Positions 1-16,205 of a DNA stretch of 64,000 nt are shown in pieces (position 1 is the stretch's first letter; every line of letters starts with the position of its first letter). The DNA is from Microscilla marina ATCC 23134 (GTDB lineage Bacteria; Bacteroidota; Bacteroidia; Cytophagales; Microscillaceae). The position numbers and the translations under genes are program-made. Where the stretch lies: contig NZ_AAWS01000013.1 of NCBI RefSeq assembly GCF_000169175.1, positions 62,001 to 126,000 of the forward strand, given 5' to 3'. The notes under the pieces were generated by a model. The model was not told the origin of the DNA. It was given only the letters and a program-made list of their open reading frames with translations, and made no database searches.

Positions 1-461
1 AACATTTGTAGTTCGTGCAGGGTGCTTACTGGTGCCAGGTCTGACACAAGGGTACGCGAGCAGTCGAGGCTACGTAGTTTGGGCAGGGTCATTAATGGCG
101 ACAGCGAGGTAATTTTGGTATTATGGCAAAGCAGCGTTTTGAGGTGAGGCAATGCTGTAAGCGGTGCCAATGAGGTAATCTTGCTGTTGTGGCAGATAAT
201 CTCTTCGAGCGATACTAATACACGGAAAAATTTGCCGTTGATACGGACTTTGGCAGGGTCAAACTCTTCTTTGAAAAACACACGATAGATTTTTTCAGGA
301 GCGTAATAATAGTTTTCGCGCGAGGCGGCCAAACCTATAATTTTGCTCTCCGATAACCTTGTTTTAAATATGTAATTAATCAAAAAAACCTTTTGCCACT
401 CCTGATCCAAATCATCCCACCATTGTTGTATTTTTTCAAAATCTAGTTCTTGGGTTGTCAT
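1..461 (-). CDS. Leucine-rich-repeat protein (partial, runs off the left edge)
   Basis: The frame is open from an ATG at 461 to the window edge, so only the first ~153 residues are visible. After an acidic, aromatic N-terminus (MTTQELDFEKIQQWWDDLD) there is a ~70-residue non-repeat stretch. It is followed by tandem ~22-residue repeats of the form 'L..L..L..L.C.NTKITSLSPL', matching the internalin/LRR_4 pattern. No signal peptide is seen, so a cytoplasmic scaffold or ligand-binding role is likely. The C-terminal part and the repeat number are unknown. The following divergent stretch to 575 shows nothing of note. Confidence 0.75.
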   Translation of the reverse strand, partial: MTTQELDFEKIQQWWDDLDQEWQKVFLINYIFKTRLSESKIIGLAASRENYYYAPEKIYRVFFKEEFDPAKVRINGKFFRVLVSLEEIICHNSKITSLAPLTALPHLKTLLCHNTKITSLSPLMTLPKLRSLDCSRTLVSDLAPVSTLHELQM

Positions 462-575
462 TTTTGTTACTATATGGGGTGGTTGCCTACTGCATAATGT
501 CTGGAGTATGTTGTTAAATATGTTTTGTGTAAATTACAAATGTAATAAAAATCCTTTGATACGATCTTTTTAAGT

Positions 576-1286
576 CTAACTATTATCTTTTAAAGAAGCA
601 AGCAACGTTTGCCAGTTGCCTTGGTGGGTAGGGTTTTGTAAGTGCTGCTTAAGTTGAGCCATGTACTCATCGCGGGGTATTTCTTCGGCACCAAGGCTCT
701 CTAAATGTTGGGTATATACCTGGCAATCAATCAATTTTATACCTAATAGCTGAAGCTTTTGAACCATTGTAATAAAACCAGCTTTTGAGGCATTACTTGC
801 CTTGCTAAACATAGATTCGCCGAAAAAACAATGCCCCAGCGATACTCCATACAGTCCACCTACCAGTTGCCCTTGTTGCCATACCTCTACCGAGTGGGCA
901 AACCCTTGGGCGTGCAACTGGCAATACCCTTCCAGCATATCCTCGGTGATCCAGGTGCCTTGTTGTCCTGTACGTTTTATTTGTTGGCAGGCAATCATTA
1001 CTTCTTTAAACCTTTGGTCAAATGTTACCTCAAACAGCCCTTTTCTCAGTACTTGTCGCATGCTTTTAGACACCCTGAGTTGGGTGGGGTATAGCACAAA
1101 ACGGGGGTCAGGTGCCCACCACATAATAGTAGGGTCTTCTTCACTATACCAGGGAAAAATTCCTGACTGATAAGCCAGCAGTAGCCTTTCTACCGACAAG
1201 TCTCCGCCAAACGCCAGTATGCCGTGTTCGTCGGCGTAGTGTACCGGAGGGAAATACAAAGACTCGTCTAACAAAGTATAGCGCAT
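576..1286 (-). CDS. aat: Leucyl/phenylalanyl-tRNA--protein transferase
   Basis: This enzyme transfers Leu or Phe from aminoacyl-tRNA to proteins with N-terminal Arg or Lys, marking them for ClpAP degradation (N-end rule). The family signature is clear: FPPVHYADEHGILAFGGDL, then LLLAYQSGIFPWY, then MWWAPDPRFVLYP, GTWITEDM and the C-terminal GGLYGVSLGHCFFGESMF block with LIDCQVYTQHLESLGAEEIPR. I chose the ATG at 1286 (MRYTLLDESLYFPP) because it matches the family N-terminus. The frame stays open upstream to 1331, but that extension is not conserved. The protein is 236 aa, normal for the family. It is a single gene with no obvious operon partner. Confidence 0.95.
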   Translation of the reverse strand: MRYTLLDESLYFPPVHYADEHGILAFGGDLSVERLLLAYQSGIFPWYSEEDPTIMWWAPDPRFVLYPTQLRVSKSMRQVLRKGLFEVTFDQRFKEVMIACQQIKRTGQQGTWITEDMLEGYCQLHAQGFAHSVEVWQQGQLVGGLYGVSLGHCFFGESMFSKASNASKAGFITMVQKLQLLGIKLIDCQVYTQHLESLGAEEIPRDEYMAQLKQHLQNPTHQGNWQTLLASLKDNS

Positions 1287-1539
1287 AGGTTTGATATAAA
1301 AAAATGAAAAATAGAGTTTTACAACCTTCAAAACAACAACTTCTAAAGTTAAAAAAGCTTTAGTTGGGATAAAAGTTTTGCTAAAGCTAAAGCCAGTAAT
1401 AGGGCAATTTTGTTACCCGAAGTTGGTAGACTCTAATTGACAGATGTGTATAAAAATGTGTAAATCGGACAGACCTCTCCACAATATTTTTTATACTTGC
1501 ACTTCGTTACGGGACAATAGCTTAAAATATTGTTGTCTT

Positions 1540-1805
1540 AGAGCTTGTTTAAAATTAGCCGAAAAGGCTGAGCTCGCTAAAGCTCGGTTCATTGATTAGG
1601 TCTTTTATGCGATTTTTCTGATTATATATTGTCAAATTTAGCTTCGCAGAGCTCGGCAGAGCATAGCTCTAGCCATCGGTTCTTCAAAATTAGTTTAAAT
1701 GCCAATTTTCAAAGGTGAAACAGAGCTCGCTAAAGCTCGGTTTGACGCATCTAATCCAAAAATTCATCATAAAATCTCCTGTAAACGAAAATTTAAACAA
1801 GCTCT
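1540..1805. repeat. MITE-like element, family 1, copy A
   Basis: This is a 266-bp non-coding element bounded by imperfect terminal inverted repeats. The left end is AGAGCTTGTTTAAAATT and the right end is the reverse complement of AGAGCTTGTTTAAATTTT. Inside, the sub-repeat gagctcgctaaagctcgg occurs twice, near each end. A second copy lies at 5469-5763 and shares most of its length. The element sits between aat and the transketolase gene and ends 53 bp before the transketolase ATG, so it separates that gene from upstream promoter sequence. A duplicated target site cannot be fixed (a flanking TTA is possible). No transposase is nearby. Confidence 0.8.
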
Positions 1806-1857
1806 TACATCTGAATACTACTTCAACATTACTTTTAATGAAGAGCAATTAGTGTCC

Positions 1858-2814
1858 ATGAAAAAGTTTGAAATTCTAAAGACTGCCGATACCCGTTCTG
1901 GTTTCGGAGATGGTTTGAGCGAGTTGGGTAAGAAAAACCCCAAGGTAGTGGCGTTGTGTGCCGACCTTACCGGATCGCTAAAAATGGGGCAATTTAAAAA
2001 AGACTTTCCTGAGCGTTTCTTTCAGGTAGGCATCGCAGAAGCCAACATGATGGGGGTAGCCGCCGGATTGACCATTGGAGGGCAAATTCCTTATACAGGT
2101 ACATTTGCTAATTTTTCTACCGGAAGAGTTTACGACCAAATACGCCAGTCGATTGCTTATTCGGAAAAGAATGTGAAAATATGTGCGTCGCACGCGGGCA
2201 TTACATTGGGCGAAGATGGAGCAACCCACCAAATATTAGAAGATATTGGGATGATGAAAATGTTGCCTCACATGACCGTTATCAACCCTTGTGACTATAA
2301 CCAAACCAAGGCAGCTACTATTGCCATTGCCGATCATGAAGGACCTGTATACCTGAGGTTTGGACGCCCCAAAGTACCTGCATTTATAGCTCCTGATGCT
2401 CCATTTGAGATAGGCAAAGCCTTGATGCTCAACGAAGGCAATGATGTATCTATTTTTGCTACTGGTCATTTGGTATGGAAGGCAATCCAGGCGGGCGAAA
2501 TACTGGCCGAAAAAGGCATCAATGCCGAAATTATCAATATTCATACAATCAAGCCGCTAGACATAAAAGCCATCATTGCTTCGGTAAAGAAAACCGGGGC
2601 AGCAGTAAGTGCCGAAGAGCACCAACTCAATGGAGGTTTGGGCGATAGCATTGCTCAAACATTGGCAAGAAATTATCCTGCACCACTCGAAATGGTAGGG
2701 GTAAACGATCAGTTTGGCGAAAGCGGTAAACCTGAAGACTTAATGGAAAAGTACGGTTTGTCGGCGCAGCATATTGTAGATGCAGCCCTCAAATCTATAG
2801 AGCGTAAGCAGTAA
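1858..2814 (+). CDS. Transketolase, C-terminal half (pyrimidine-binding and C-terminal domains)
   Basis: The 318-aa protein carries the pyrimidine-binding domain (residues ~5-170, with the cofactor-activating Glu in [16 protein letters not shown]) and the transketolase C-terminal domain (~190-310, [16 protein letters not shown]). The N-terminal TPP-diphosphate-binding half is absent, so it must work with a separate N-terminal subunit encoded elsewhere, as in other split transketolases. The expected reaction is two-carbon ketol transfer in the pentose phosphate pathway. I use ATG 1858 ([20 protein letters not shown]). The frame also stays open back to 1699, but that stretch is the upstream repeat element, so the longer start is an artefact. 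A terminator follows at 2873. Confidence 0.9.
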
Positions 2815-2872
2815 AAACCAAAGCTCGATGGGGCTATTCTGCATAAGAGTTTCCCGGTATATTATAAAAGAC

Positions 2873-2915
2873 AATGCCTTGCAAGTTTTTGAAAATCTGC
2901 AAGGCATTATTTTTT
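2873..2915 (+). terminator. Rho-independent terminator after the transketolase half
   Basis: A perfect 11-bp stem (AATGCCTTGCA / TGCAAGGCATT) with a 14-nt loop is followed by ATTTTTT. It lies between convergent genes. Confidence 0.8.
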
Positions 2916-2951
2916 AGTACCAGCGCTCAGGTTTGACTGTAAAGGTATGAG

Positions 2952-3653
2952 CTACAATATGTTAAGATTTTTGATAAAGTTGTTTTTGTAAGACCTGCCT
3001 ATAGGAATAGATTTGCCCCCAATCTCTACATATAAATCTTGTATAGACTCTATGTGCTGTTTGTTAACTATGTATGAACGGTGCACCCTTAAAAAGTTTT
3101 TTGCCGGAGCCAGTTTCTTCTCAATCCCCTTCATGGTAGAGTGTACCACATATTTCTTGTCGCCACAGTAAATAATAACATAATCAGACAGCGCTTCAAT
3201 ATAACTTACTTCTTCAAGTTCTATCTTCACTATCTTATAATCGGTTTTTACAAAAAGTGCCGATAGCTCTGTGTCATTGCCGCTTTGTGATTGACCCTGG
3301 AGCTGTTCTTCTACCCTGGCTACTGCTTTAAGAAAACGAGGGTAGTTGATTGGTTTGATGATATAGTCAGTCACATTGTATTCAAATGCTTCTACAGCAT
3401 ACTCCATCTTAGAGGTAATAAGTACAATGCATATAGAGGTAGACTTAAGGGCTGCAACGAGTTCAAGACCAGTCATTTCGGGCATTTCTACGTCCAAAAA
3501 GAGAATATCAACCGATTTGTCTTTCTTTAATATATTGATAGCATCAATCGCATTATCGCACAAATGCTTTAGGGTAAGCGAGTCTGTTTTTTCGACAAAA
3601 TGCTCTACTACTTTACGCGAAATGTCTTCATCATCTACAATCATGCAATTCAT
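2952..3653 (-). CDS. LytTR-family response regulator (orphan)
   Basis: This is a two-component transcription regulator. A receiver domain (residues ~1-115) has the acidic pair DDED at 7-10, the phospho-acceptor Asp in ILFLDVEMPEMTG (about D54), the SK motif (LITSKMEYAVEAFE) and the KPI motif. It is followed by a LytTR DNA-binding domain (~135-233) with YIEALSDYVIIYCGDKKYVVHSTMK and FLRVHRSYIVN. I start at ATG 3653 (MNCMIVDDED); an in-frame TTG at 3659 adds only two residues. No LytS-type histidine kinase is adjacent, so the partner is elsewhere. Targets are unknown. Confidence 0.93.
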   Translation of the reverse strand: MNCMIVDDEDISRKVVEHFVEKTDSLTLKHLCDNAIDAINILKKDKSVDILFLDVEMPEMTGLELVAALKSTSICIVLITSKMEYAVEAFEYNVTDYIIKPINYPRFLKAVARVEEQLQGQSQSGNDTELSALFVKTDYKIVKIELEEVSYIEALSDYVIIYCGDKKYVVHSTMKGIEKKLAPAKNFLRVHRSYIVNKQHIESIQDLYVEIGGKSIPIGRSYKNNFIKNLNIL

Positions 3654-3744
3654 AAGCAAGTAGGGGGTTTAATTAGGTAAACAGTAAATAAGGGGATTGA
3701 TTAGTTGTCTAAACATACAAAAAAACCATCAATTTATAACAGTG

Positions 3745-4347
3745 TTACTGGCTATATTGCGACACCAGTCGTTGTACGTACTTTCCTATAATATCAAACT
3801 CCAGGTTTACCTGATGGTTTGGTTCCAGGGTTTTAAAGTTGGTGTGTTCGTAGGTATACGGAATAATGGCTACCGAAAACCCCGTATCTTTTGAGTTAAA
3901 TACTGTCAGGCTTACTCCATTGATACAAATAGAACCTTTCTCTACAGTTACCTGATAAGAAGCATCTTCGCTTTTGGGGTACTCAAAGGTAAACACCCAG
4001 CTGCCATCTTTCTCTTCTTTTTGCACGCAAGTACCCACTTTGTCTACGTGCCCTTGTACAATGTGCCCATCCAGGCGGGCGTTCATTAGCATACTGCGTT
4101 CCAGGTTTACCAAAGTGCCTACTTTCCATTGCCCAAGGTTGGTTTTTTGCAAAGTTTCGTCAATTGCTGTTACTTTATACAGGTCACCCTCTATGTCGGT
4201 TACTGTAAGGCAAACCCCGTTGTGGGCTACACTTTGATCTATTTTTAGCTCAGATGTAAAAGTACTGTGCAGGGTAAAAATGTAGTTAGAGCCTTCGTTT
4301 TCGATGGCCTTTACTTCTCCCAGTGTTTCTATGATTCCTGTAAACAT
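3745..4347 (-). CDS. ribE: Riboflavin synthase, alpha chain
   Basis: The enzyme catalyses dismutation of two 6,7-dimethyl-8-ribityllumazine molecules to riboflavin. The 200-aa protein shows the two lumazine-binding repeats. The first starts MFTGIIETLGEV with AHNGVCLTV, and the second has LDGHIVQGHVDKVG and GSICINGVSLTV. The catalytic N-terminal MFTG motif is intact, which fixes the start. It is downstream of and co-directional with the tryptophan dioxygenase gene, but a hairpin separates the two, so separate transcription is likely. No RFN riboswitch is seen. Confidence 0.96.
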   Translation of the reverse strand: MFTGIIETLGEVKAIENEGSNYIFTLHSTFTSELKIDQSVAHNGVCLTVTDIEGDLYKVTAIDETLQKTNLGQWKVGTLVNLERSMLMNARLDGHIVQGHVDKVGTCVQKEEKDGSWVFTFEYPKSEDASYQVTVEKGSICINGVSLTVFNSKDTGFSVAIIPYTYEHTNFKTLEPNHQVNLEFDIIGKYVQRLVSQYSQ

Positions 4348-4375
4348 AAAATTACATGTGGTTTAAATATAAAGC

Positions 4376-4406
4376 AGGAATGAATGCCGCAGGTACATTC
4401 ATTCCT
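4376..4406 (-). terminator. Hairpin between tryptophan dioxygenase and ribE
   Basis: A perfect 11-bp stem (AGGAATGAATG / CATTCATTCCT) with a 9-nt loop lies just past the stop of the minus-strand dioxygenase gene. A short, imperfect T-rich run follows in the minus direction. Confidence 0.55.
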
Positions 4407-4444
4407 GACATTTGTTTCCAGTGTGTCTTCAGAGTTAAAAATTA

Positions 4445-5422
4445 CTATTGTTTATCTACCCATTTTTTGCCCCACTCGTTTATTTCGTTTTCCACCCACA
4501 GTTCAGGGTAGAATATCACCTTTTGAAAACGGGGAGGGAGGTATTTTTGCCAATTGGTACCCCCGGTAGCATCTATGGTACCATCACCGTTTTTGAGGTA
4601 ACGCACTGCCGACTTAAAGTGTGCCAGGCGCCAATCTACATTCATGAGGGTGTCAAATTTACGCAAGGCTTCTTTCATCTGCTCTTTTTGCGTGTCGGTG
4701 GTTGCTGGCTGTGCTACAAGTTTGAGGTAGATTTGCCACAGGTTACTGGTGCGGGTGGCTTCGCCCAGTAGAATAAAGTCGGTTTTGTATTTTTCCTGAA
4801 AGTGCTTAGAGGTAATTGTTTCTTCGCCAGTAGTGTCGTCAGTAGCTCCAGCTTTCCAATAAATGTACTGAAACATATCACTAATTTCATCATTAGGTGC
4901 AAAGCTATTTTTGTGTTTTTTGTTGACAAGGTTGATAAAATCGGTTGCCCAGATCTCTATTTTGCGTATTTGCGCCGACTGAAAACCACTGGCAGGCAGT
5001 AGTGCCATTCTAAACTGACGAAATTGTTTTACATCCATTCCCTCAATCATTGTATCATAACTAAATGTAAGGATTTGGAAGAATAAATTGATACGCTTGA
5101 GTTTGGTAGTAAAAAAATCGGCAGTAATATTTTCTTCAGTGGCAATTTGCTCTATTTCGCTCAGTATCAGTTTAAAATAAAGTTCGGTGACCTGATGATA
5201 CACAATAAAAATCATTTCATCAGGAAAGTCAGTGCGAGGGTTTTGCAGGCTCAATAGGGTGTCTAGGTGGACGTAGTTCCAGTATTTTAGGTAATTGGCG
5301 TGCAGCAAACCTTCGAGATTGTCGGTCAGACTTTGTCCGGTGAGGCTATATTTTTTTTTAAGTTCGCTTAGAAGATTGTCTACCAACTCAGGGTCAGTTT
5401 CTTGTTTATCAGAGTAATTCAT
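4445..5422 (-). CDS. kynA: Tryptophan 2,3-dioxygenase
   Basis: A heme enzyme that opens the indole ring of L-tryptophan to N-formylkynurenine, the first step of the kynurenine pathway. Family blocks are visible: DEMIFIVYHQVTELYFKLIL (heme-distal His region), GMDVKQFRQFRMALLPASGFQSAQIR (substrate recognition), WRLAHFKSAVRYLKNGDGTIDATGGTNW (proximal-His region) and YLPPRFQKVIFYPELW at the C-terminus. The length, 325 aa, fits the Bacteroidota members. No other kynurenine-pathway genes are adjacent. Confidence 0.95.
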   Translation of the reverse strand: MNYSDKQETDPELVDNLLSELKKKYSLTGQSLTDNLEGLLHANYLKYWNYVHLDTLLSLQNPRTDFPDEMIFIVYHQVTELYFKLILSEIEQIATEENITADFFTTKLKRINLFFQILTFSYDTMIEGMDVKQFRQFRMALLPASGFQSAQIRKIEIWATDFINLVNKKHKNSFAPNDEISDMFQYIYWKAGATDDTTGEETITSKHFQEKYKTDFILLGEATRTSNLWQIYLKLVAQPATTDTQKEQMKEALRKFDTLMNVDWRLAHFKSAVRYLKNGDGTIDATGGTNWQKYLPPRFQKVIFYPELWVENEINEWGKKWVDKQ

Positions 5423-5468
5423 CGTGTGTTGCGTTATTTCTTAGGGTATTGCCCACAAAGCAGGCATT

Positions 5469-5763
5469 AGAGCTTGTTTAAAATTAGCCGAAAAGGCTGA
5501 GCTCGCTAAAGCTCGGTTCATTAATTAGATCTTTTATGTGATTTTTCTGATTATTATATTGTCAAAGCGTAGCTTCGAAGAGCCCCGAATCAAGTTCGGG
5601 ATTTAGAAACTCGGCAGAGCATAGCTCTAGCCATCGGTTCTTCAAAATTAGTTTAAATGCTAATTTTCAAAGGAGAAACAGAGCTCACTTACGCTTGGTT
5701 TGACGCATCTAATCTAAAAACTCATCATAAAATCTCCTATGACCGAAAATTTAAATAAGCTCT
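5469..5763. repeat. MITE-like element, family 1, copy B (with nested insertion)
   Basis: This is the second copy of the element at 1540, in the same orientation, 295 bp long. The ends again read AGAGCTTGTTTAAAATT and (reverse complement) AGAGCTTATTTAAATTTT. Relative to copy A it carries about 27 extra bases containing the hairpin cccgaatcaagttcggg at ~5584-5601. The same motif recurs at ~41091 inside another element. It lies in the promoter region between the divergent tryptophan dioxygenase and coiled-coil genes. The remaining 5764-5957 stretch shows no feature. Confidence 0.8.
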
Positions 5764-5957
5764 ACAAGTTTTTTTCAAAATTAGATTTTTTGGGTCAAAT
5801 CCTAAACTTTTTGACAGAAACGTCAGACTATTTTTTTTCCGAACAATAGCCATTGCCAGAAAAACAGGGAAAAATGAAGCCTCCATTAAAAATATTGGTA
5901 ATTTGGGGTAACCTTATCCTTTGATTGCCAATAAACACCAAATTACAATTATGCCCC

Positions 5958-6893
5958 ATGAGTGACTTAAAAACAGTGAGTCGTACAGAGCGCTTGATTT
6001 ACCTCGTAACCATTGTTGTGTTGTTGGGCATTATAGCATATATTTATTACTCCAGCAAAAACACCCATATAAAAACCGAAGTGCTCAACCAAAGGTCAGA
6101 ACAATTACAACAAGAACTCAAACAATTAAATCACCAGATTAAGCGCAAAGAAATAGAAATAGACCAGGTAGCCCATAGCAAAGACATAGTGTTGAAAAAT
6201 ACCCGGCTTCAACTGGAGCGGGAACTTAAAAAACTGAAAATACAACGAAAAATCATTAAGCAACACTTGAAAGATATAGGAGTGTTCAAAGAAGAAAAAG
6301 TAGTCAATACCGAAAAAATACTTCGCTTAAATAAAGAATTGCTCACCGCGAAAAATAATTTACAAGCAGTAAAAAAAAGCATTCCCCGCTTGATTAGAGG
6401 TAAGATAGACTCAGTAAAAAAACAAGGTAGTTTGCAAACAAACCGTATGAGGCAGCAAAACACTCAGTTAAAACAACAGGTACGCCAAAGCCAACAAAAA
6501 CAGCAAAACCTAAGCAACCAACTCAAAGTACTGGAAAAACGCAGACGTTTGTTGTCATCCCCCCCCTTAAGGATAGAGGTGTTTAGCGATGCCTCCAAGT
6601 TGCGTTACAGTAAGTTGAGCCGTTATATACAGCTCTATTTTACCATCTTACCCAACCCTATCAGAAAGCCTGAGAACAAGTTGATCAAAGTATACCATTT
6701 GTTGTATAAATACGAAAACAACAAAACCCAGATGAAGCGTCGCTTGATTACTACAATTCCTTACCGTAAGCAAAAGCGATTGAATAAATCGGTCAAATAC
6801 AATAACCGCAAGCCCTTTGCAAAGGGAACCCACGTGTTTGAAGCAGAGGTAGATGGAATGGTGTTGGCAAGTAAAACTGTAAATGTAGAGTAG
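5958..6893 (+). CDS. Membrane-anchored coiled-coil protein, paralogue of the 7736 gene
   Basis: I do not recognise a named family. The 311-aa protein has a short cytoplasmic N-terminus, one membrane segment (RLIYLVTIVVLLGIIAYIYY, residues ~14-33), a Gln/Lys-rich coiled coil (~40-200), and a ~105-residue C-terminal domain rich in alternating hydrophobic residues, likely beta structure. The C-terminal domain matches that of the 7736 protein over LIKVYHLLYKYE...RRLITTIPYRKQKR...GTHVFEAEVDG. The likely location is the inner membrane with a periplasmic coiled coil. I chose ATG 5958 (MSDLKTVSRTERL) because its spacing to the membrane segment matches the paralogue. The frame extends to 5925 without support. 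Confidence 0.75.
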   Translation: MSDLKTVSRTERLIYLVTIVVLLGIIAYIYYSSKNTHIKTEVLNQRSEQLQQELKQLNHQIKRKEIEIDQVAHSKDIVLKNTRLQLERELKKLKIQRKIIKQHLKDIGVFKEEKVVNTEKILRLNKELLTAKNNLQAVKKSIPRLIRGKIDSVKKQGSLQTNRMRQQNTQLKQQVRQSQQKQQNLSNQLKVLEKRRRLLSSPPLRIEVFSDASKLRYSKLSRYIQLYFTILPNPIRKPENKLIKVYHLLYKYENNKTQMKRRLITTIPYRKQKRLNKSVKYNNRKPFAKGTHVFEAEVDGMVLASKTVNVE

Positions 6894-7299
6894 ACGTGCT
6901 TTTTTGAGTGATTTTACACTTCATAACCCGGTTATTATTTAAAATCATTAGTAAATTTGCAAATGGTTAATTGAACTGTTTTATAAAATGAACTGAAGGG
7001 CAGTACTTTGGTAAAACTACAAAAATAACCTAACCGCAGAACGAAGTTCAAGCTCTGCGCAGCTAATCCATTGTACTTCTTCAAAAATTTACCCTGTAAG
7101 GGACTTCCATAGCTAAGGCTATGTAAATGTTTTTTTTATCGTGCAATTAGAGATTCCTCAAGGCGAAACAAACAGATACTGCCTTCTTTGGGATTACTTT
7201 ATTTTTTCTGTTTTACTTAAGCAAAGAGATGCTTGAAAAGTACTTGAAAAAATATTATTTTTATAAAACAAGTGACAACAAAAATAAAATAGCTTTTTC
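6894..7299. other. Intergenic region with hairpin
   Basis: There is no gene in these 406 bp. A short hairpin catagctaaggctatg lies at ~7108-7123 and is followed within six bases by eight Ts. A similar motif (catagccaaagctatg then Ts) recurs at ~49304. The hairpin could terminate transcription from 5958 or be part of a dispersed repeat. A candidate promoter lies at 6932-6959. Confidence 0.4.
6932..6959 (+). promoter_or_regulatory. Candidate Bacteroidota-type promoter
   Basis: The -7 element TAAATTTG matches TAnnTTTG exactly and lies 17 nt after TTA, one mismatch from the -33 TTG box. It points toward the 7300-10034 gene set, but is ~340 bp upstream of the first start. Confidence 0.3.
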
Positions 7300-7734
7300 G
7301 TGGAAAAAAAATTAAAACTATATGTGTTTGCAGCAAGCTTTGTTTTAATGCTAATGTTGATTTTCTTTACCCTGAAGCCTGTCTACTTACGGGCGTCACA
7401 GCCAACCAAGAAAGTGTTTAAAACGGAAAACCTTAAGTTGGTATTGCAAAATTACTTTAACAAGGTAGCCACCGCCAATTTGTCTGCACAAGAAAAAGAT
7501 CGTTTTGCAAATAAGATTATTTCGCGTTGCGAAAGTGATGGCATTCTGGTTTTTTACCGCTATAAAGACACTAAAGTGCAAGACACCCTGTCGTTGGCAA
7601 GTTATCTTACACGTCTTAAAATATTGGGTTACAGGCAACCCCGCGTAATGGCAATACAACGCAATGCCCAACAAAAAGCGGTAACTGAGTTGAGGATTGT
7701 TGAAGATAGAAAGAAAACAAAATCAGACATTTAG
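7300..7734 (+). CDS. Small membrane-anchored protein of unknown function
   Basis: This 144-aa protein begins with GTG and has a basic N-terminus and one strong membrane segment (LYVFAASFVLMLMLIFFTL, residues ~7-25). A ~115-residue, basic, probably mixed alpha/beta extracytoplasmic domain follows (KTENLKLVLQNYFNKV...SLASYLTRLKILGY). No family is recognised. Its stop codon lies one base before the ATG of the next coiled-coil gene, which indicates translational coupling and a joint role. The GTG start is supported because the membrane segment follows directly. Confidence 0.65.
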   Translation: MEKKLKLYVFAASFVLMLMLIFFTLKPVYLRASQPTKKVFKTENLKLVLQNYFNKVATANLSAQEKDRFANKIISRCESDGILVFYRYKDTKVQDTLSLASYLTRLKILGYRQPRVMAIQRNAQQKAVTELRIVEDRKKTKSDI

Positions 7735-7735
7735 C

Positions 7736-8614
7736 ATGAGCAAAGAACTACACACGGTGAAAAATGAGCGCATTGTCTACCTAATGATTATTACATTATT
7801 GGTGTTGATTTTGGCTTATGTTGTGTTGATGAACGGCAACGACCGCGAAAAAAAGAGTTTACTCACTGAGAGCGAAGCTACCCTACGCAAAGAAATAGGG
7901 CAGCTTGATAGGGTGATTCAGGAGCGCGAAACCCAGGTAAAAGGGCTAACTACCAAAAATAGCAAGCGCAAGCAAGAATTGGTAGAGGCGATCAATGCTT
8001 TGAAAGGGCTCAAGGTTGAAAAACAAAAACTGCTCAAAAATGTACAAACCCTCAAGCGGGAGCACAACATTAACCTAAGACGTATTACCGACCTTAACTC
8101 TAAGATTGTAAAGCTGCGGAAAAGTGTAGCAGAGGTAAAGGAGCGGTATGTCAATGCGCCCCGCAATGTAGTTGACAGTAGTATACTGTTGGTGTTGAAT
8201 CAGTTAAAAAACGAAAACTCTTTGCTGTTGGCCGACAAAACCTACCTGAGTGAAAGGGTAAGCAATCTCGAAAACAAAGTAAGTAGTTCGCTTCCGGTAC
8301 ATGTGCAAATGGCCGCCGAAAAAAAAGGAAACAAACAGGTGAACCTTACCTTTTTTGTGTTTCCTAACAAGGCTCACCAACAAATAGATCGCTTGATCAA
8401 GATTTTTCATTTGCGTTACAAGTACAACAAGGTCAAAAAAGACACAGAGATAGAACGTGTACTTATTACCACCCTCGCCTACAAGAAAAAGCGCATGACT
8501 AAACGATTTGTTTACACCCCAAAAAAAGAGTTTGAAGCAGGTACACATATCTTTGAGGCAATGACTGGAGGCGAAACTTTGGGAAGTAGCAAGCTAAACA
8601 TTAGCGAGAAGTAA
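7736..8614 (+). CDS. Membrane-anchored coiled-coil protein, paralogue of the 5958 gene
   Basis: The 292-aa protein has the same layout as the 5958 product. There is a short N-terminus (MSKELHTVKNERIVYL), a membrane segment at ~14-34 (IVYLMIITLLVLILAYVVLM), and a coiled coil at ~40-185 with heptad-like L/I and K/E spacing. A C-terminal beta-rich domain follows (RLIKIFHLRYKYN...RVLITTLAYKKKRM...GTHIFEAMTGGE). The two clearly arose by duplication. ATG 7736 is used because it follows the 7300 stop directly. Tethering or scaffolding in the periplasm is an inference from architecture only. Confidence 0.75.
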   Translation: MSKELHTVKNERIVYLMIITLLVLILAYVVLMNGNDREKKSLLTESEATLRKEIGQLDRVIQERETQVKGLTTKNSKRKQELVEAINALKGLKVEKQKLLKNVQTLKREHNINLRRITDLNSKIVKLRKSVAEVKERYVNAPRNVVDSSILLVLNQLKNENSLLLADKTYLSERVSNLENKVSSSLPVHVQMAAEKKGNKQVNLTFFVFPNKAHQQIDRLIKIFHLRYKYNKVKKDTEIERVLITTLAYKKKRMTKRFVYTPKKEFEAGTHIFEAMTGGETLGSSKLNISEK

Positions 8615-8619
8615 ATGCA

Positions 8620-9063
8620 ATGGTTATGAAAAAACAGTGGATTGTATTAGTGTGCCTGTTGACAATAGTAGGCGTTGGGTGTATACCTGCGACTAACTTA
8701 TGGAAGGTGCTGATGAAGGTAAAGTGGGTAAAAAAGTATGACCAGAAAACAAAGGCAAATGCCTATGTGCCCAAATTTACTAAAGAAATACAAGCCCTCA
8801 ACGGCAAGCAAATCACCATCAAAGGTTACCTTATACCAGTAGATTTATACGGCGATGGCGACTTTGCCATTATATCGGCTTTGCCAGTAGCGAGTTGTTT
8901 TTTTTGTGGAGGAGCTGGCCCCGAAACTGTGATGGAGGTATATACCAAGCAAAAAATTAAAGCCGATAAATCGGGTAAAGTCACCTTTAGAGGCAGGTTG
9001 GAGCTCAACCCTGACAATGCCGACCACTTGATTTATATTTTGCGAGATGCTAAAGTGATGTGA
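8620..9063 (+). CDS. Predicted lipoprotein, OB-fold-like with CFFCGGAGPE motif
   Basis: The 147-aa protein begins with a signal peptide and a lipobox-like VGVGC (Cys at residue ~21). The core reads LNGKQITIKGYLIPVDLYG...SALPVASCFFCGGAGPETVMEVY...FRGRLELNPDNADHLIYILRDAK. This resembles small Bacteroidota proteins with a DUF3299-like OB-type fold. The paired Cys residues (CFFC) could bind metal or form a disulfide; that is inference. It starts 5 bases after the coiled-coil gene stop, so it is co-transcribed. A second ATG at 8626 is equally possible. Confidence 0.65.
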   Translation: MVMKKQWIVLVCLLTIVGVGCIPATNLWKVLMKVKWVKKYDQKTKANAYVPKFTKEIQALNGKQITIKGYLIPVDLYGDGDFAIISALPVASCFFCGGAGPETVMEVYTKQKIKADKSGKVTFRGRLELNPDNADHLIYILRDAKVM

Positions 9064-9095
9064 TTTCCTTTTTTAGAAAACCTCTAACCAAATTT

Positions 9096-10034
9096 ATGAA
9101 ACGAATAATAAGTGCTTTAGCTTTATGCTTATGTATGGTGGCTTGTGCCGATAGTAAAAAAGAAAATAACCACGATACCCCTGCCGTTACCCATAAGTTT
9201 GACTCGATAGGGGCGAACAGTAAAAAAACGGTAGACTCTATTGCCAAGGCTAAAATGGAGGATACCACCAGACTCTCAAAAACAGAAAGACTCAGTATAT
9301 CAAGCTTAGACACTACTTTAAAGGCGGCAGGTTATGAGTTTACTTTTAGTGAAGTTTCCAAGCCTGCTTTTGAGCAAAATTTTAGATACAGCAATCCTAC
9401 CAGTCAAAAGTACCACCAATTATGTGTGAGTATTCCTGTTAAAAAATACCCTGCTGTAGACTGTGCCGATACGCTGGAAGCCTCGCAGTTAAAAAAGCAT
9501 AAAGCCTTTATTCAGGTTTTCCCTGTAGTAAGTGAAATGGTAGAAGGTAGAAAAAAAATGGGCAAACGGTTTGCCTTTGGTACTCGTAAACAGTTTCGCC
9601 TGGTTGATAACATGACTTATGGAGAGGCGAGTAATTTTCATTATTTCCGAGAAATCATACAGCTCAACGATCATCCTTACTTTGTGTTTTTTAGGCAAAA
9701 CTGGGAGGGGGCTGATTACTTGATGGTTTCGGGCAAAACAGGCAAAGACACTCACCTCAATGGTGTTCCTCAAATATCGCCCAACAAGTTATATGCTTTT
9801 ACAACACCTTATGATGCAGGAACTTATCACAATTTTTTGGGTGTAGAGCTATGGCAGGCAACCGCTACACAATTGACCAAGGTGTTTAGTTTAAATATTG
9901 ATGTAGGCTCCCCTTGGCGGAGTTATTGGCTAGACGATCAAACCATTATGGTTGAAATAAGAAAGGGAAGCTTAGATAATTATACCTATCGTTATGGCAA
10001 AATAAGTTTGCGTAAGCTGCCCAAGAGTAAATAA
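9096..10034 (+). CDS. Predicted lipoprotein of unknown function
   Basis: The 312-aa product begins MKRIISALALCLCMVACADSKKEN: a basic start, a hydrophobic core and a lipobox ending in Cys17, so it is a lipoprotein. The mature N-terminus is Ser/Lys/Asp-rich and probably flexible (~20-75). The rest is a beta-rich domain with repeated aromatic motifs (FHYFREIIQLNDHPYFVFFRQNWEGADYLMVSG, WRSYWLDDQTIMVEI) reminiscent of propeller-type blades. No catalytic motif is recognised. ATG 9096 is chosen over the in-frame 9060 because only this start gives a signal peptide. It is the last gene before a strong terminator. Confidence 0.7.
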   Translation: MKRIISALALCLCMVACADSKKENNHDTPAVTHKFDSIGANSKKTVDSIAKAKMEDTTRLSKTERLSISSLDTTLKAAGYEFTFSEVSKPAFEQNFRYSNPTSQKYHQLCVSIPVKKYPAVDCADTLEASQLKKHKAFIQVFPVVSEMVEGRKKMGKRFAFGTRKQFRLVDNMTYGEASNFHYFREIIQLNDHPYFVFFRQNWEGADYLMVSGKTGKDTHLNGVPQISPNKLYAFTTPYDAGTYHNFLGVELWQATATQLTKVFSLNIDVGSPWRSYWLDDQTIMVEIRKGSLDNYTYRYGKISLRKLPKSK

Positions 10035-10036
10035 CA

Positions 10037-10068
10037 AAAGCCCCACTTGTGCGCACAAGTGGGGCTTT
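10037..10068. terminator. Bidirectional terminator, perfect 16-bp stem
   Basis: AAAGCCCCACTTGTGC is followed at once by its exact reverse complement, a 32-bp perfect palindrome ending in TTT on either strand. It lies between the convergent lipoprotein gene and purS. Confidence 0.9.
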
Positions 10069-10094
10069 GCAGTAATTTTGAGCCAATGGTATGC

Positions 10095-10349
10095 TTAAAT
10101 CTCCAGATTGATTTTATAAGTATATTCCTCTACAATCATATTGGCGAGTAATTTTTTGCAAGCTGTTTCGGTCTTTTGCTTAGCCTCTTCCAGGTTTTCT
10201 GCCTCAAGGTTCATCACAATGTGCTTGCCCACTCTAATATCATTTACATTGTTGATACCCAAATTACCCAAGCCCAGTTTTACGGCTTTTCCCTGAGGGT
10301 CTAATATCTCGGTGCGAGGCATAATATCTATTTCAGCTTGAAATTTCAT
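10095..10349 (-). CDS. purS: Phosphoribosylformylglycinamidine synthase, PurS subunit
   Basis: PurS is the small structural subunit that bridges PurL and PurQ in the three-part FGAM synthase of purine biosynthesis. The 84-aa protein shows the family pattern: FQAEIDIMPRTEILDPQGKAV, LGNLGINNVNDIRVGKHIVMNLEAENLEEA, CKKLLANMIVEEYTYKI. purL and purQ are not next to it, so the subunit gene stands alone here. Confidence 0.95.
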   Translation of the reverse strand: MKFQAEIDIMPRTEILDPQGKAVKLGLGNLGINNVNDIRVGKHIVMNLEAENLEEAKQKTETACKKLLANMIVEEYTYKINLEI

Positions 10350-10596
10350 TGTACTGTCAAGTTAGAAGTTAAAACTACAGATTCAATTGAGTTGCAATTA
10401 ACGAAGGTTCGCGGATAATTAAAAAAGCCGATTATAGATTTTTTGTTTTTAAATAGTAGCGAGCCATTAGTTTCAAGCCACAAGCGCCAGTAAATTACTC
10501 AAAAAAAGTGTATTACTGGAGCCCAATCATTGCCAAGGCTTTGCCTGATATATCTAAATAAGCAGTGTACTTAGCACCATCTAAACGGTAACTTAT

Positions 10597-11409
10597 CTAA
10601 AAATTGACTCCTTGACGATTGACTATTTTCTTGCCTTGGTTGGCAATGACAAAAGGTACTTGGTTGATGTCCCATTTGAGCACCAACCCTTTGGCAACCC
10701 CATCAGCGGCTTTTTTTCCGTAGAGCAACTGCACCAAATACAAGGCTGCTTCAAACGAGCGGGCTCCTCCAGCAGAAGTAATATATTTGCCGTCGTGTAC
10801 AAACCACACCTTGTCTAATATGTTGAGCTTTGGAAAGCGTTGACGGTATTTCTCCACGTCCCCCGGAAACGTAGTAGATGCCACATTGTCGAGCAAACCG
10901 GCTTGCGCCAGTACAAAAGCCCCGTCGCAATGCGATGTGACATAGCGCGCCTCTTTGTCTACTTTTTTTACAAAGTTGATCATAGTAGTATCTTTCAGGT
11001 CGGTGTCTAGGTGGTGCTCAGCACTGGGCACTACCAACACATCTATTTTAGGTAGTTTGTCTTTGGTATAGCTATAGTCTGGCAATATTTTTACCCCCTC
11101 GAAAGTAGTAATGGCTGCTTTGCTTTTGGCTATAGTAAACACCCTCATTCCAGGTTTGGCGTGAAAAATAGTATGTTGAAACATATCTATAGGTGCAGTG
11201 AGTTCGGTGTTAAAAGTACCATCCATAATCAAAAAAGCCACATGGAGTGTGTCGGTGGGCGTGTCTACCTTGGGCAAGGCAATCTGGGTGGTTTTTTTAG
11301 GTACAGTTGTATCTGCCTGAGAGGCTTCGTTTTGCTGGGATTGAGGCTGGCAAGCAACCATCAAAGCTACTATTGCCAGTATGGGCAGGCAAAGATATAT
11401 GTTCTTCAT
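10597..11409 (-). CDS. DJ-1/PfpI-family lipoprotein
   Basis: The 270-aa protein has a lipoprotein signal (MKNIYLCLPILAIVALMVACQ, lipobox LMVAC) and a DJ-1/PfpI (class I glutamine amidotransferase-like) domain from about residue 50. That domain includes LHVAFLIMDGTFNTELTAPIDMFQH, VLVVPSAEHH and the nucleophile elbow YVTSHCDGAFVLAQAGLLD with the conserved Cys. Relatives in AraC regulators carry a DNA-binding domain after this fold; here there is none. An envelope location is unusual for this fold. Substrate and activity are unknown. Confidence 0.85.
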   Translation of the reverse strand: MKNIYLCLPILAIVALMVACQPQSQQNEASQADTTVPKKTTQIALPKVDTPTDTLHVAFLIMDGTFNTELTAPIDMFQHTIFHAKPGMRVFTIAKSKAAITTFEGVKILPDYSYTKDKLPKIDVLVVPSAEHHLDTDLKDTTMINFVKKVDKEARYVTSHCDGAFVLAQAGLLDNVASTTFPGDVEKYRQRFPKLNILDKVWFVHDGKYITSAGGARSFEAALYLVQLLYGKKAADGVAKGLVLKWDINQVPFVIANQGKKIVNRQGVNF

Positions 11410-11723
11410 TATGTTTGCGTATGAGGTGATTGGTAAACAAAATTAAAATAAGTATTACCAAAGGCTAACACTACTTTGGGTAACTGGAGTTCAGTTTCGG
11501 CTTTGTTTCTTTGCTAAAGAAATAAGCAGACCAAGGAAGTTGGGAGTTCGCGGGTCTGCTTAGTAAACTGAATTTTTCGTTTTTGAAAAGAGTTTTGTGA
11601 TGAATTTTTGGTAAGTAACTATTGAGGCAGAATTAAATATACCTAATGAGTAGGTGTAACAGCCATATTATGAATGGGTTACCCTTACTTGTAGCTAATT
11701 ACTTGCTGCTACTTACTAACTAA

Positions 11724-11865
11724 CTGAAGTTACGTAGACCTACTTATTTTAATGGTTATGTGGCTTTATTGCTAAATGATTGGGCTACGCATCGCGCAAC
11801 CATAAAACAATAAAGCTATCAAACAATATAAATAAGCAGACTTGGAAATTACTGCGTAACATCAG
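11724..11865. repeat. MITE-like element, family 2, copy A
   Basis: A 142-bp element with terminal inverted repeats: left CTGAAGTTACGTAG, right end the reverse complement of CTGATGTTACGCAG. It also has inner inverted repeats around the phrase ggctttattg / caataaagc. A second copy in the opposite orientation lies at 19538-19667. It ends 3 bp from the stop of the small gene at 11869. The rest of 11410-11723 shows no gene or clear motif. Confidence 0.78.
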
Positions 11866-11868
11866 TAA

Positions 11869-12087
11869 CTAATAAATCACTCTTTTCAAAGTCCAGTATA
11901 GCCAATTGCTATTAGCCACACAAGAAGCTACCTCCCATCCTTCACTTCCCAACTCAGTAAGCATTGTCACTACCTCGCCATAGGTACCCGTGCGGGTAAA
12001 CTCCTCGCCATTAGGCAAATTACAACGAAGGTTGCTAGAGTCCCAAAGCCATTCTACACTGGCGTATTCAAACCGTTGATTGCTCAT
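11869..12087 (-). CDS. Small DUF4177-like protein
   Basis: The 72-aa soluble protein has the layout of DUF4177-type small proteins: an opening strand (QRFEYASVEWLW), a helix (TYGEVVTMLTELGSEGWEVAS) with the typical 'LxxLGxEGWE' motif, and a closing strand (NWLYWTLKRV). No function is known. Family 2 repeat DNA abuts its 3' end. Confidence 0.7.
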   Translation of the reverse strand: MSNQRFEYASVEWLWDSSNLRCNLPNGEEFTRTGTYGEVVTMLTELGSEGWEVASCVANSNWLYWTLKRVIY

Positions 12088-12342
12088 AATTGTTTTTTTT
12101 TATTAATAAGATTTTGATGATGCTCAAGCTACAAGATTTGCCAAATAAATTCTATAATCAGGAAGTGTTTTTTATGACAAGGCAGTATTGTTCGCTTGCC
12201 TTTTCTCAAGCTGATAAGTTGACATACAAGCTTAAAGGCAACTCAAAAAATGATGAATGACCAGCAGTCAAAAACTTAGCATGGTTGACTTAAAGCCTAT
12301 TTTTTGGATAAATGCCGTAATTTTGATAGCTTGCCAAAGCTT

Positions 12343-12435
12343 TAGGGGTGTTCTGTGAAGTAGTTATTTTATTTTGCAGGACTGAGACAATACCCTTTGA
12401 ACCTGATGTAGTTTATACTACCGGAGGGAAAAGTG
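12343..12435 (+). promoter_or_regulatory. TPP riboswitch (THI element)
   Basis: Conserved TPP-aptamer blocks are present in order: AGGGGTG at 12344, CTGAGA at ~12382 with ACCCTTTGAACCTGAT, and the 3' CCGGAGGGAA at 12421-12430. It lies ~190 bp before thiS, as expected for thiamine feedback control. The aptamer 3' strand GGAGGGAAAAGTG can also pair with CACTTTCCCTGG at 12480-12491, which sits just before a T-rich tract. I infer an expression platform based on this competing stem; its direction (terminator or antiterminator) was not calculated. The rest of 12088-12622 shows no gene. Confidence 0.92.
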
Positions 12436-12622
12436 AACAAAATACTACTATTCTTTAGGGAGGTTGTATATATACCTTAACACTTTCCCTGGTATTTCCT
12501 CATTTTTTTCCCCAAGTACTGTTCAAAAACAATCGTATTCCTCTGAGCTCATCATAAGATATAAATTTGTGGCAGCAATACGCCTTGGCGTTTAGAGGCT
12601 GGTCACTTATAGCTTAAAAAAA

Positions 12623-12826
12623 ATGGAAATACACATCAATCAAAATACCTATAGTTTCGATGCGTCAAAAACCATCGATGAAGTGCTCGAAGTGCTGGAT
12701 TTGCCCCGACACAAAGGCGTGGCTATAGCCGTGAACAATGCTGTAGTGCCTCAACACCAATGGGCAAGTTATGATCTCAAAAATGCCGACAAAGTATTGT
12801 TAATCAAGGCATCGGCAGGAGGGTGA
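12623..12826 (+). CDS. thiS: Thiamine sulfur-carrier protein ThiS
   Basis: The 67-aa ubiquitin-fold protein ends in the required Gly-Gly (KASAGG), the site of C-terminal adenylation and thiocarboxylation that delivers sulfur for the thiazole ring. The core INQNTYSFDASKTIDEVLEVL...GVAIAVNNAVVPQHQWASYDL fits the family. It is the first gene after the riboswitch. The adenylating partner ThiF is not in this window. Confidence 0.95.
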   Translation: MEIHINQNTYSFDASKTIDEVLEVLDLPRHKGVAIAVNNAVVPQHQWASYDLKNADKVLLIKASAGG

Positions 12827-15578
<2,752 letters not shown>

Positions 15579-16205
15579 ATGAACATTATTGTAATCTCTA
15601 GCCCGCAACAAGAACTCAACGAAGCAAGCATCATTGGTGCCTTGTTTGAGCACGGGCTGGAAGTATTTCATTTGCGCAAGCCAACCTACTCGATATACGA
15701 CACGGAGGCTTTGATTCAAGCGATTGAACCTAAGTTTCGCGACCGGGTAGTGTTGCACCATCATTATGCACTTGCCGAAAAATACAATTTGCGAGGTATT
15801 CACTTTACCGGGCATTATGTCAAAAGCCACAGTGATCAACTTACGAATTGGTATGACAAGGCAAAGCAACAAGCAATGACGGTGAGTGGTTCCAAACATC
15901 AGCTCAAAGAGTTAGAAACCCTGGAGGTACCTTACAACTATGTATTTTTGAGCCCAGTGTTCGACAGCATTTCGAAGGCAGGCTACAAAAGTAATTTTGC
16001 TGATTTGAAGAGTATAGAAAAATACAAGAGTGCTACCCAGCTTATTGCGTTGGGTGGCATCTCTTTAGATAAGATAGACCAAGTCAAACGCATGGGATTT
16101 GACGGCGCGGCGGTATTGGGTACTGTTTGGGAAAAGCCTGCTCAGGCAATCGCGGTATTTATGGAGTTAAAAGCAGCATGGGAAAAGAAAGACCAAATAT
16201 TTTAA
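15579..16205 (+). CDS. ThiE/TenI-like thiamine phosphate synthase family protein
   Basis: The 208-aa TIM-barrel protein belongs to the ThiE/TenI family (LEVFHLRKPTYS, FLSPVFDSISKAGYKSNF, ALGGISLDKIDQVKRMGFDGAAVLGTVW). The standard ThiE motif GVHLGQED is replaced by GIHFTGHY, whereas the second family member at 17513 keeps it. This copy is therefore more likely a TenI-type or otherwise diverged enzyme than the main thiamine phosphate synthase. Similar pairs flank thiD in related Bacteroidota. Its 3' end overlaps thiD by 28 bp, so the two are coupled. Confidence 0.85.
   Translation: MNIIVISSPQQELNEASIIGALFEHGLEVFHLRKPTYSIYDTEALIQAIEPKFRDRVVLHHHYALAEKYNLRGIHFTGHYVKSHSDQLTNWYDKAKQQAMTVSGSKHQLKELETLEVPYNYVFLSPVFDSISKAGYKSNFADLKSIEKYKSATQLIALGGISLDKIDQVKRMGFDGAAVLGTVWEKPAQAIAVFMELKAAWEKKDQIF

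What the first reader, a model, noticed from the sequence alone, without database searches (positions are those of the whole stretch)
5958..10034. Locus of paired coiled-coil membrane proteins, a small anchored protein and two lipoproteins
Two paralogous proteins (5958, 7736) share an N-terminal anchor, a long coiled coil and a C-terminal beta domain. They bracket a one-TM protein coupled to the second by 1 bp, and are followed by two lipoproteins in the same direction up to a perfect terminator. The layout suggests an envelope complex spanning the periplasm, and no family is recognised for most members.
Basis: partly seen in the sequence, partly recalled or inferred. Interest (0 to 1): 0.65.

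Follow-up and report, generated by a model that had tools for sequence, protein, structure and literature searches.

The report
Membrane-anchored stalk proteins of Bacteroidia
Two neighbouring genes encode divergent copies of a rod-shaped, membrane-anchored protein that nearly every sampled genome of one large bacterial class carries, that has no entry in the protein-family libraries searched, and that probably reaches into the space between the two cell membranes; the surrounding gene cluster itself is special to one genus.

Summary
In detail: five genes, a clear paralogous pair (5958, 7736), a one-TM protein ending 1 nt before the second, two exported proteins, then a hairpin. The five-gene order was found only in the one other species of the genus sampled; it is not a Cytophagales-wide complex. 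The larger finding: the pair's C-terminal domain matches, by profiles built without window proteins, an unnamed family of ~300-residue proteins (TM anchor, coiled coil, C-terminal domain) found in 274 of 295 class genomes (12 of which supplied profile rows) and 0 of 223 genomes of other classes of the phylum; no Pfam or NCBIfam model was seen to cover that domain. AlphaFold models of P0003 and of a relative both give an Ig/FnIII-like sandwich on a helical stalk. Fusions and signal-peptide copies suggest the stalk points into the periplasm, but the topology of the window pair itself is unsettled. The first "lipoprotein" (8620) is a DUF3299-like (ZrgE-like) protein; its link to the stalk is genus-only. 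Best reading: inner-membrane-anchored periplasmic stalks with an Ig-like tip, duplicated and strongly basic in this genus. The mechanism is inferred; membership is well supported.

The parts
4445..5422 (-). Tryptophan 2,3-dioxygenase gene (named by eye), head-to-head with P0001
   Evidence: ORF. The same head-to-head arrangement with a stalk-family gene is seen in at least 10 of 295 class genomes, by comparing the listed rows by eye (both lists are cut).
5958..6893 (+). P0001: stalk-family paralogue 1 (311 aa; TM at residue 13, coiled coil, C-terminal domain from about residue 201); net charge +42
6558..6890 (+). P0001 C-terminal domain
   Evidence: hhalign against 10 relatives without window proteins: probability 92.8, E 4e-7 (together with the P0003 domain and the two sister copies); hmmsearch with the same 10-row set E 3.9e-5 in a set of 6 sequences
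6894..7299 (+). 406-nt gap between P0001 and the P0002-P0005 unit; 299 identities in 408 alignment columns with the sister species
7300..7734 (+). P0002: small one-TM protein, GTG start, 144 aa; no relative outside the genus at E<=0.01 in 57 genomes
7736..8614 (+). P0003: stalk-family paralogue 2 (292 aa), 1 nt after the P0002 stop; net charge +25
   Evidence: (found at E 3.2e-4, profile positions 82-127 of 128, by a profile without it)
8297..8602 (+). P0003 Ig-like C-terminal domain (residues 188-289, seven strands; ten-residue pLDDT means 69-88 from residue 191 to 290)
8620..9063 (+). P0004: exported DUF3299-like (ZrgE-like) protein with SCFFCGGAGPE motif; possible lipoprotein
9096..10034 (+). 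P0005: probable lipoprotein (MVAC, by eye), faster-evolving; only weak partial relatives outside the genus
10037..10068 (+). Hairpin with a perfect 14-pair stem between convergent genes
   Evidence: scored as terminator on the - strand only

Best explanation
P0001 and P0003 are duplicated, genus-specific, strongly basic members of an unnamed protein family that nearly every sampled genome of the class carries. Each is anchored in the inner membrane by one N-terminal helix, sends a long coiled coil (about 150 residues) into the periplasm and ends in an Ig/FnIII-like sandwich. They most likely act as dimeric rods that hold the Ig-like tip at a set distance from the inner membrane, where it binds something near the peptidoglycan or outer membrane: a structural tether or reach-across adaptor. 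Copy 2 (P0003) lies in one tight gene unit with the small membrane protein P0002, the DUF3299-like protein P0004 and the probable lipoprotein P0005, in this genus only. Shown here: paralogy, family membership, class-wide distribution, predicted fold, genus-limited gene order. Inferred: periplasmic direction for the window pair, dimerisation, tether role, co-transcription.
For: Membership: C-terminal domains of the pair against 10 relatives, hhalign 92.8%, E 4e-7, four control comparisons with coiled-coil parts E 0.54-0.82; against a 24-row class profile 92.1%, E 6.3e-7; a profile without window proteins finds P0003 in the genome at E 3.2e-4. Same architecture and length: 80 of 80 named relatives have one N-terminal hydrophobic segment, 78 of them starting at residues 10-29 (4 of the 80 give tied peaks of one segment), lengths 292-341, median 308.5. 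Distribution: 274 of 295 class genomes, 240 of 253 good ones (262 of 283 without the 12 genomes that gave rows); 64 of 73 class and 0 of 223 other-class genomes of the phylum; with a 10-row profile of which one row's genome is in the sample, 64 of 73 and 1 of 223 (weak, E 0.006). Fold: models of P0003 and of an Echinicola relative both give the Ig-like sandwich, best VIA match AlkC (its Ig-like domain, name recalled), Z 10.2 (99 aligned, 2.9 A) and Z 11.0 (101 aligned, 2.1 A). Export: in 76 of 80 named relatives the side before the helix is more positive; one own-genome copy reads as having a signal peptide in place of the anchor (L075, L077, by eye); the domain is fused behind kinase-TM-coil (L230; domain match E 3.9e-5) and behind an OmpA domain (L229; E 2.2e-14).
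Against: The positive-inside test is undecided for the window pair and its sister copies (before > after in 2 of 4) and weaker in the other class loci (63 of 93); the coils of the pair are strongly basic, which also fits a cytoplasmic or nucleic-acid-binding protein. The P0003 model has pTM 0.37 and ten-residue pLDDT means of only 48-67 from residue 111 to 190 apart from one block of 73. The profile hit on P0003 covers only the last third of the domain, P0001 was not found there at E<=0.01, and the 24-row profile does not list the pair at E<=0.001. The infC-type relatives are linked to the pair only through the third set (direct hhalign probability 0.6). No partner of the tip is known.
Confidence: 0.6

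Rival explanations
1. P0002-P0005 (with or without P0001) form a dedicated envelope complex: the stalk carries or docks the two exported proteins at the outer membrane.
For: Tight spacing 1, 5 and 32 nt and purifying selection of all members; order kept in the sister species.
Against: 0 of 154 loci around other family members have relatives of P0002, P0004 or P0005 at E<=0.01; P0004 relatives occur in 30 of 57 genomes and elsewhere keep other company; P0005 evolves faster than its neighbours.
Confidence: 0.25
2. The unit is a metal (zinc) starvation unit: P0004 is a ZrgE-like factor and the stalk helps a metal ABC system that lies elsewhere.
For: 12 of 23 P0004-family members match DUF3299 at E<=0.01, P0004 not among them; DUF3299 is ZrgE of a Zur-regulated zinc operon in Vibrio parahaemolyticus (PMC9817125, passages); two own-genome paralogues follow a COG0523-type GTPase gene with folE close by (L051, names by eye); a FtsX/MacB-type permease lies beside the relative in 9 of 28 loci (by eye).
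Against: P0004 itself is below the Pfam cut-off (13.5 of 22 bits); no ABC or metal gene in the window unit (by eye); no regulator site was tested.
Confidence: 0.2
3. The TM-coil-Ig module is a sensor: the tip feels an envelope state and the coil passes it through the membrane, as in the kinase fusion.
For: Kinase-TM-coil-domain fusion in one genome.
Against: In the window pair only 12 residues precede the membrane helix, too little for an output domain; the fusion was seen once.
Confidence: 0.1
4. The coil and domain stay in the cytoplasm and bind an acidic partner such as nucleic acid; neighbours rpsF and infC hint at translation.
For: Net charge +42 and +25; rpsF on the same strand in 64 of 80 named loci; infC in 16 of 221 loci, some of them overlapping. 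Best structural match is a domain of a DNA glycosylase.
Against: The 80 named relatives average -3 and 76 of 80 are more positive on the short side; signal-peptide copies and the OmpA fusion put the domain outside.
Confidence: 0.08

Closest known systems
GldM/PorM, periplasmic shaft of the type IX secretion motor
   Same: Bacteroidota, periplasmic dimer forming an 18 nm shaft from the inner membrane (PMC9389320, passages); TM plus helical part plus beta domains (recalled).
   Different: No GldM model among the matches shown for the pair or for 15 relatives (25 of 33 NCBIfam families shown); one tip domain instead of several; no GldL-like gene seen by eye among the ORFs beside it.
PorE-type OmpA-family proteins (PD40, CarboxypepD_reg, OmpA)
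   Same: One protein with these three domains carries the same Ig-like domain at its C-terminus (domain hit E 2.2e-14). That PorE has this layout is recalled.
   Different: PorE is a periplasmic lipoprotein at the outer membrane (PMC7192894, start of abstract in a listing); the pair has no OmpA domain and is anchored by a TM helix.
ZrgE / DUF3299 (for P0004)
   Same: 12 of 23 family members match DUF3299; relatives beside permeases, as in the Zrg operon.
   Different: P0004 has a CFFCGGAGPE motif, is below the family cut-off, and sits in no ABC operon.
Ig-like domain of AlkC and FnIII/Ig domains of glycoside hydrolases
   Same: Fold: Z 10.2 and 11.0 to AlkC; Z about 8-10 to domains of glycoside hydrolases.
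   Different: A common sandwich fold at 3-19% identity; shows no shared function.

Membership tests
Class-wide TM / coiled-coil / Ig-like stalk family (unnamed; defined here) | Homologous C-terminal domain | tested here: met
   hhalign E 4e-7 and 6.3e-7; P0003 found at E 3.2e-4 by a profile without it, P0001 not found at E<=0.01; P0003 5e-8 and P0001 3.9e-5 in a 6-sequence hmmsearch
Class-wide TM / coiled-coil / Ig-like stalk family (unnamed; defined here) | Single N-terminal membrane helix and length near 300 aa | tested here: met
   TM at residue 13, 311 and 292 aa; 80 named relatives 292-341 aa
Class-wide TM / coiled-coil / Ig-like stalk family (unnamed; defined here) | Long coiled coil between anchor and domain | tested here: met
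   Heptad-range periodicity above nearly all shuffles; helices 36-70, 73-138, 144-183 in the model, the last stretch at low confidence
Class-wide TM / coiled-coil / Ig-like stalk family (unnamed; defined here) | C-terminal part in the periplasm | tested here: inconclusive
   76 of 80 named relatives by charge, but 2 of 4 for the window and sister proteins
GldM/PorM | GldM domain models | tested here: not met
   None among the Pfam matches or the NCBIfam matches shown
GldM/PorM | Adjacent GldL motor gene | tested here: not met
   ORFs of window 1-16000 and of the sister locus, read by eye
DUF3299 / ZrgE (P0004) | Pfam PF11736 at its cut-off | tested here: not met
   13.5 bits against 22; 12 of 23 family members, not P0004, at E<=0.01
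DUF3299 / ZrgE (P0004) | Neighbouring ABC permease and ATPase genes | tested here: not met
   No such gene in 5958-10034, read by eye
DUF3299 / ZrgE (P0004) | Zinc-dependent (Zur) regulation | not testable with these tools
   needs transcription data
Ig/FnIII-like fold (tip domain) | Seven-stranded sandwich | tested here: met
   Seven strands in the P0003 model; Z 10.2 and 11.0 to AlkC

The most novel reading that the evidence does not exclude
A class-wide, nearly universal trans-periplasmic stalk of Bacteroidia, so far without a family model: an inner-membrane rod with an Ig-like tip that couples the inner membrane to the wall or outer membrane and that also serves, by fusion, as the outer half of a receptor kinase and as an add-on to an OmpA-type wall binder. 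In this genus it has been multiplied (seven copies in the genome), made strongly basic in at least four of them and wired to a ZrgE-like protein.
Probability: 0.4. Interest if true: 0.72.

Novelty: new variant of a known kind. Interest (0 to 1): 0.5.

Why it matters
A protein kept in 274 of 295 sampled genomes of a whole bacterial class but not covered by the curated family libraries searched is a likely core component that annotation has missed. If it is a periplasmic tether or spacer it bears on how these bacteria hold their two membranes apart and place their class-specific secretion and uptake machines. The genus-specific pair is a ready natural contrast: the same rod made basic and put into a new gene unit.

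Tried and rejected
Single-sequence searches with P0003 suggested a genus-only orphan (2 of 57 genomes); profiles of the C-terminal domain overturned this. Coiled-coil matches in Pfam, NCBIfam and PDB (SMC, Rad50, IncA, GldL coil at E 0.052 and others) were set aside as compositional. The infC-type profile A5 reaches few genomes (7 of 296) and does not list the pair, so the two types are joined only through the third set (A vs B: 95.9%, E 5.8e-9). A special origin of P0001 with the dioxygenase-linked members was not supported (hhalign 2.4%), so the shared neighbour may be chance or old synteny. P0002: no family at its cut-off, no solved relative below E 0.42; its best outside match (E 0.011, 346-aa frame; L045 read) was not accepted. 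P0005: no Pfam family at E<=1, no solved relative at E<=1. Paper searches, all in the one open-licence library: coiled-coil + immunoglobulin-like domain + Bacteroidetes + inner membrane + periplasm (0 papers), Microscilla marina + coiled-coil, rpsF + Bacteroidetes + coiled-coil (1 review, listing only), conserved signature proteins + Bacteroidetes + Cytophagales + unknown function, Flavobacterium johnsoniae + coiled-coil + periplasmic + GldM + inner membrane (2 listed, passages of one read). These do not show that the family is undescribed elsewhere. Absence of further structural relatives of the coil was not tested, since the tip fills the list. The membrane-segment caller was a plain hydropathy window, not a trained predictor. 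Counting loci: the 154, the 221 and the 96 contain stretches fetched twice.
Full report
What is in the sequence. The five ORFs are as described. P0001 (5958-6893) and P0003 (7736-8614) align over their whole length at 29% identity (E 4e-32 for that comparison). Each has one hydrophobic segment, at residue 13, a coil whose 3.4-3.65-residue periodicity was reached by 3 and 4 of 2000 shuffles, and a C-terminal domain. P0002 ends 1 nt before P0003, P0004 starts 5 nt after it and P0005 32 nt after P0004, whereas P0001 lies 406 nt upstream. Between the two species of the genus dN/dS is 0.15, 0.03, 0.06, 0.10 and 0.21 for P0001-P0005. The order, including the GTG start of P0002, is kept in the sister species. 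The hairpin at 10037-10068 is real but scored as a terminator only on the - strand.

Is the order conserved? Not seen beyond the genus. By single sequences P0003 finds only the two species (2 of 57 genomes), P0002 only those at E<=0.01, P0005 those plus four genomes with weak partial matches (6 of 57 in all). P0004 is common: 30 of 57 genomes, nine matches in the own genome, some of them broken pieces. Of 154 loci fetched around other members of the stalk family (some overlap), none has a relative of P0002, P0004 or P0005 at E<=0.01 in its flanks, mostly 1.5-3 kb; nor did 221 loci at E<=1e-6, 40 of them up to 12 kb long.

The family. A third own-genome paralogue (contig C44) and a profile of the C-terminal domain opened up the family: proteins of about 300 residues with the same layout, some beside infC, some beside rpsF and rplI. 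Because coils attract chance matches, I compared the C-terminal domains alone: window pair and sister copies against ten rpsF-type and similar proteins, hhalign probability 92.8, E 4e-7; these ten against fifteen infC-type and similar ones, 95.9, E 5.8e-9; the pair against the latter directly, 0.6 (not significant); four comparisons of domains with coils as controls, E 0.54-0.82. A profile of the ten, with no window protein in it, found P0003 in the genome at E 3.2e-4 (profile positions 82-127 of 128), did not list P0001 at E<=0.01, and found a closer own-genome member on contig C3 at E 4.8e-35. A 24-row class profile gives 92.1, E 6.3e-7 with the pair, though in a genome search at E<=0.001 it lists only the C3 copy. 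The own genome thus holds seven members: the pair, C44, C52, two in tandem on C57 near infC, and C3.

Distribution. With the 24-row profile 274 of 295 class genomes have a match at E<=0.001, 240 of the 253 that are at least 90% complete and at most 5% contaminated; 12 of the 295 had supplied rows of the profile, so 262 of 283 without them. In a sample of the phylum it was 64 of 296: 64 of 73 genomes of the class (15 of the 73 had supplied rows) and none of 223 of other classes, read from the order of the list. The 10-row profile, with one contributing genome in that sample, gave the same 64 of 73 and one weak match (E 0.006) among the 223. All six genomes of one family (f25) lacked it; loss or divergence is open. 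A scan of named genomes with an eight-row subset confirmed 151 places and kept the best 80, all labelled as Bacteroidota, mostly Cytophagales (Algoriphagus, Echinicola, Fulvivirga, Ohtaekwangia, Nafulsella and others). In 64 of 80 rpsF lies downstream on the same strand, in 46 of these 100-247 nt away and in 15 of them 844-2260 nt; 7 of the other 16 loci hold less than 3 kb downstream. No Pfam model covers the C-terminal domain consistently, nor does any NCBIfam model among the 25 of 33 families shown; the matches of 15 relatives are coil-type or scattered (two members match DUF4469, an Ig-like domain, at best 1e-4). No solved sequence matches the domain profile below E 0.98.

Fold. AlphaFold2 on P0003 with P0001 and 15 relatives: mean pLDDT 71.4, pTM 0.37, helices 36-70, 73-138 and 144-183 (ten-residue means 48-73 from 101 to 190) and seven strands from 188 to 289 (means 69-88 from 191 to 290). 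An Echinicola relative with 14 others: mean 79.9, the same layout with some extra short strands. Foldseek and VIA put both tips among Ig/FnIII-like sandwiches, AlkC first each time (Z 10.2, 99 aligned, 2.9 A; Z 11.0, 101 aligned, 2.1 A), then domains of glycoside hydrolases and others. This is a common fold and tells no function. About 140 helical residues would be near 21 nm at 0.15 nm per residue if straight (arithmetic, recalled rise), similar to the 18 nm GldM shaft (PMC9389320, passages).

Which way it points. In 76 of 80 named relatives the 15 residues before the membrane helix are more positive than the 15 after it, and in 63 of 93 other class loci with a helix (some of them overlapping fetches); for the pair and its sister copies it is 2 of 4. 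One own-genome copy (C57, second gene) has what reads as a cleavable signal peptide instead of the anchor (by eye), and so do two short proteins with weaker domain matches (L081 E 4.4e-4, L088 E 0.02). The domain also ends a kinase-TM-coil protein (match E 3.9e-5) and a PD40-CarboxypepD_reg-OmpA protein (E 2.2e-14). These put the domain outside the cytoplasm for the family. Against this, the window pair is strongly basic (+42 and +25, against a mean of -3 in the 80 relatives; two further own-genome copies are +21 and +23), which I cannot explain.

P0004. Its relatives share a CFFCGG-type motif. Of 23 members taken from the 28 collected, P0004 included, 12 match Pfam DUF3299 at E<=0.01, P0004 itself only at E 0.081. 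DUF3299 is ZrgE in the Zur-regulated ZrgABCDE operon of Vibrio parahaemolyticus, function of ZrgE unknown (PMC9817125, passages). By eye, a FtsX/MacB-type permease adjoins the relative in 9 of 28 loci, and two own-genome paralogues follow a COG0523-type GTPase gene with folE close by (L051). So P0004 brings a metal flavour, but nothing ties the window unit to zinc directly.

Neighbour on the left. The gene at 4445-5422 reads as tryptophan 2,3-dioxygenase. Comparing listed rows by eye, it stands head-to-head with a stalk-family gene, within about 3 kb, in at least 10 of 295 class genomes (six of family f79, four of f102; both lists are cut); 207 of 295 have a dioxygenase match at E<=1e-20. This may be old synteny kept at P0001, but the pair is not closer in sequence to those members, and none of the ten is in the window's order.

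Judgement. Membership is well supported, the periplasmic rod with an Ig-like tip is the likely form, and the tether role is an inference.

Noticed in passing
window 1538-1805 and 5467-5763: A dispersed repeat in two pieces (88 nt at 97%, 154 nt at 92%) lies upstream of two different genes; it fills part of the gap before P0001.
   Followed up: partly
window 9096-10034: P0005 has dS 0.985 between the two species against 0.10-0.21 for the four genes beside it, as if replaced by recombination in one species.
   Followed up: no
L229:3194-5998: The same Ig-like domain ends a protein with PD40, CarboxypepD_reg and OmpA domains.
   Followed up: partly
L230:1364-3541: Ser/Thr kinase - TM - coil - Ig-like domain fusion in a genome of the same family, beside two more kinase-like genes.
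   Followed up: partly
G000 contig C57 (L075, L077): Two tandem stalk-family genes near infC in the own genome, the second with what reads as a signal peptide instead of a membrane anchor.
   Followed up: partly
L051:2182-4668: Two tandem P0004 paralogues follow a COG0523-type GTPase gene, with folE close by: looks like a zinc-starvation locus (names by eye).
   Followed up: no
G000 contig C19, 128562-136003: Pieces of P0004-like genes, some with stop codons inside, in a stretch with ABC-type permease and receptor-like genes (names by eye).
   Followed up: no
window 15347-15601: An ORF made largely of a short tandem repeat (TMDYGLW units) overlapping the start of the gene at 15579.
   Followed up: no
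named loci L149-L228: The stalk-family gene lies upstream of rpsF in 64 of 80 loci, in 46 of them 100-247 nt away: an unexplained link to ribosomal protein genes.
   Followed up: partly
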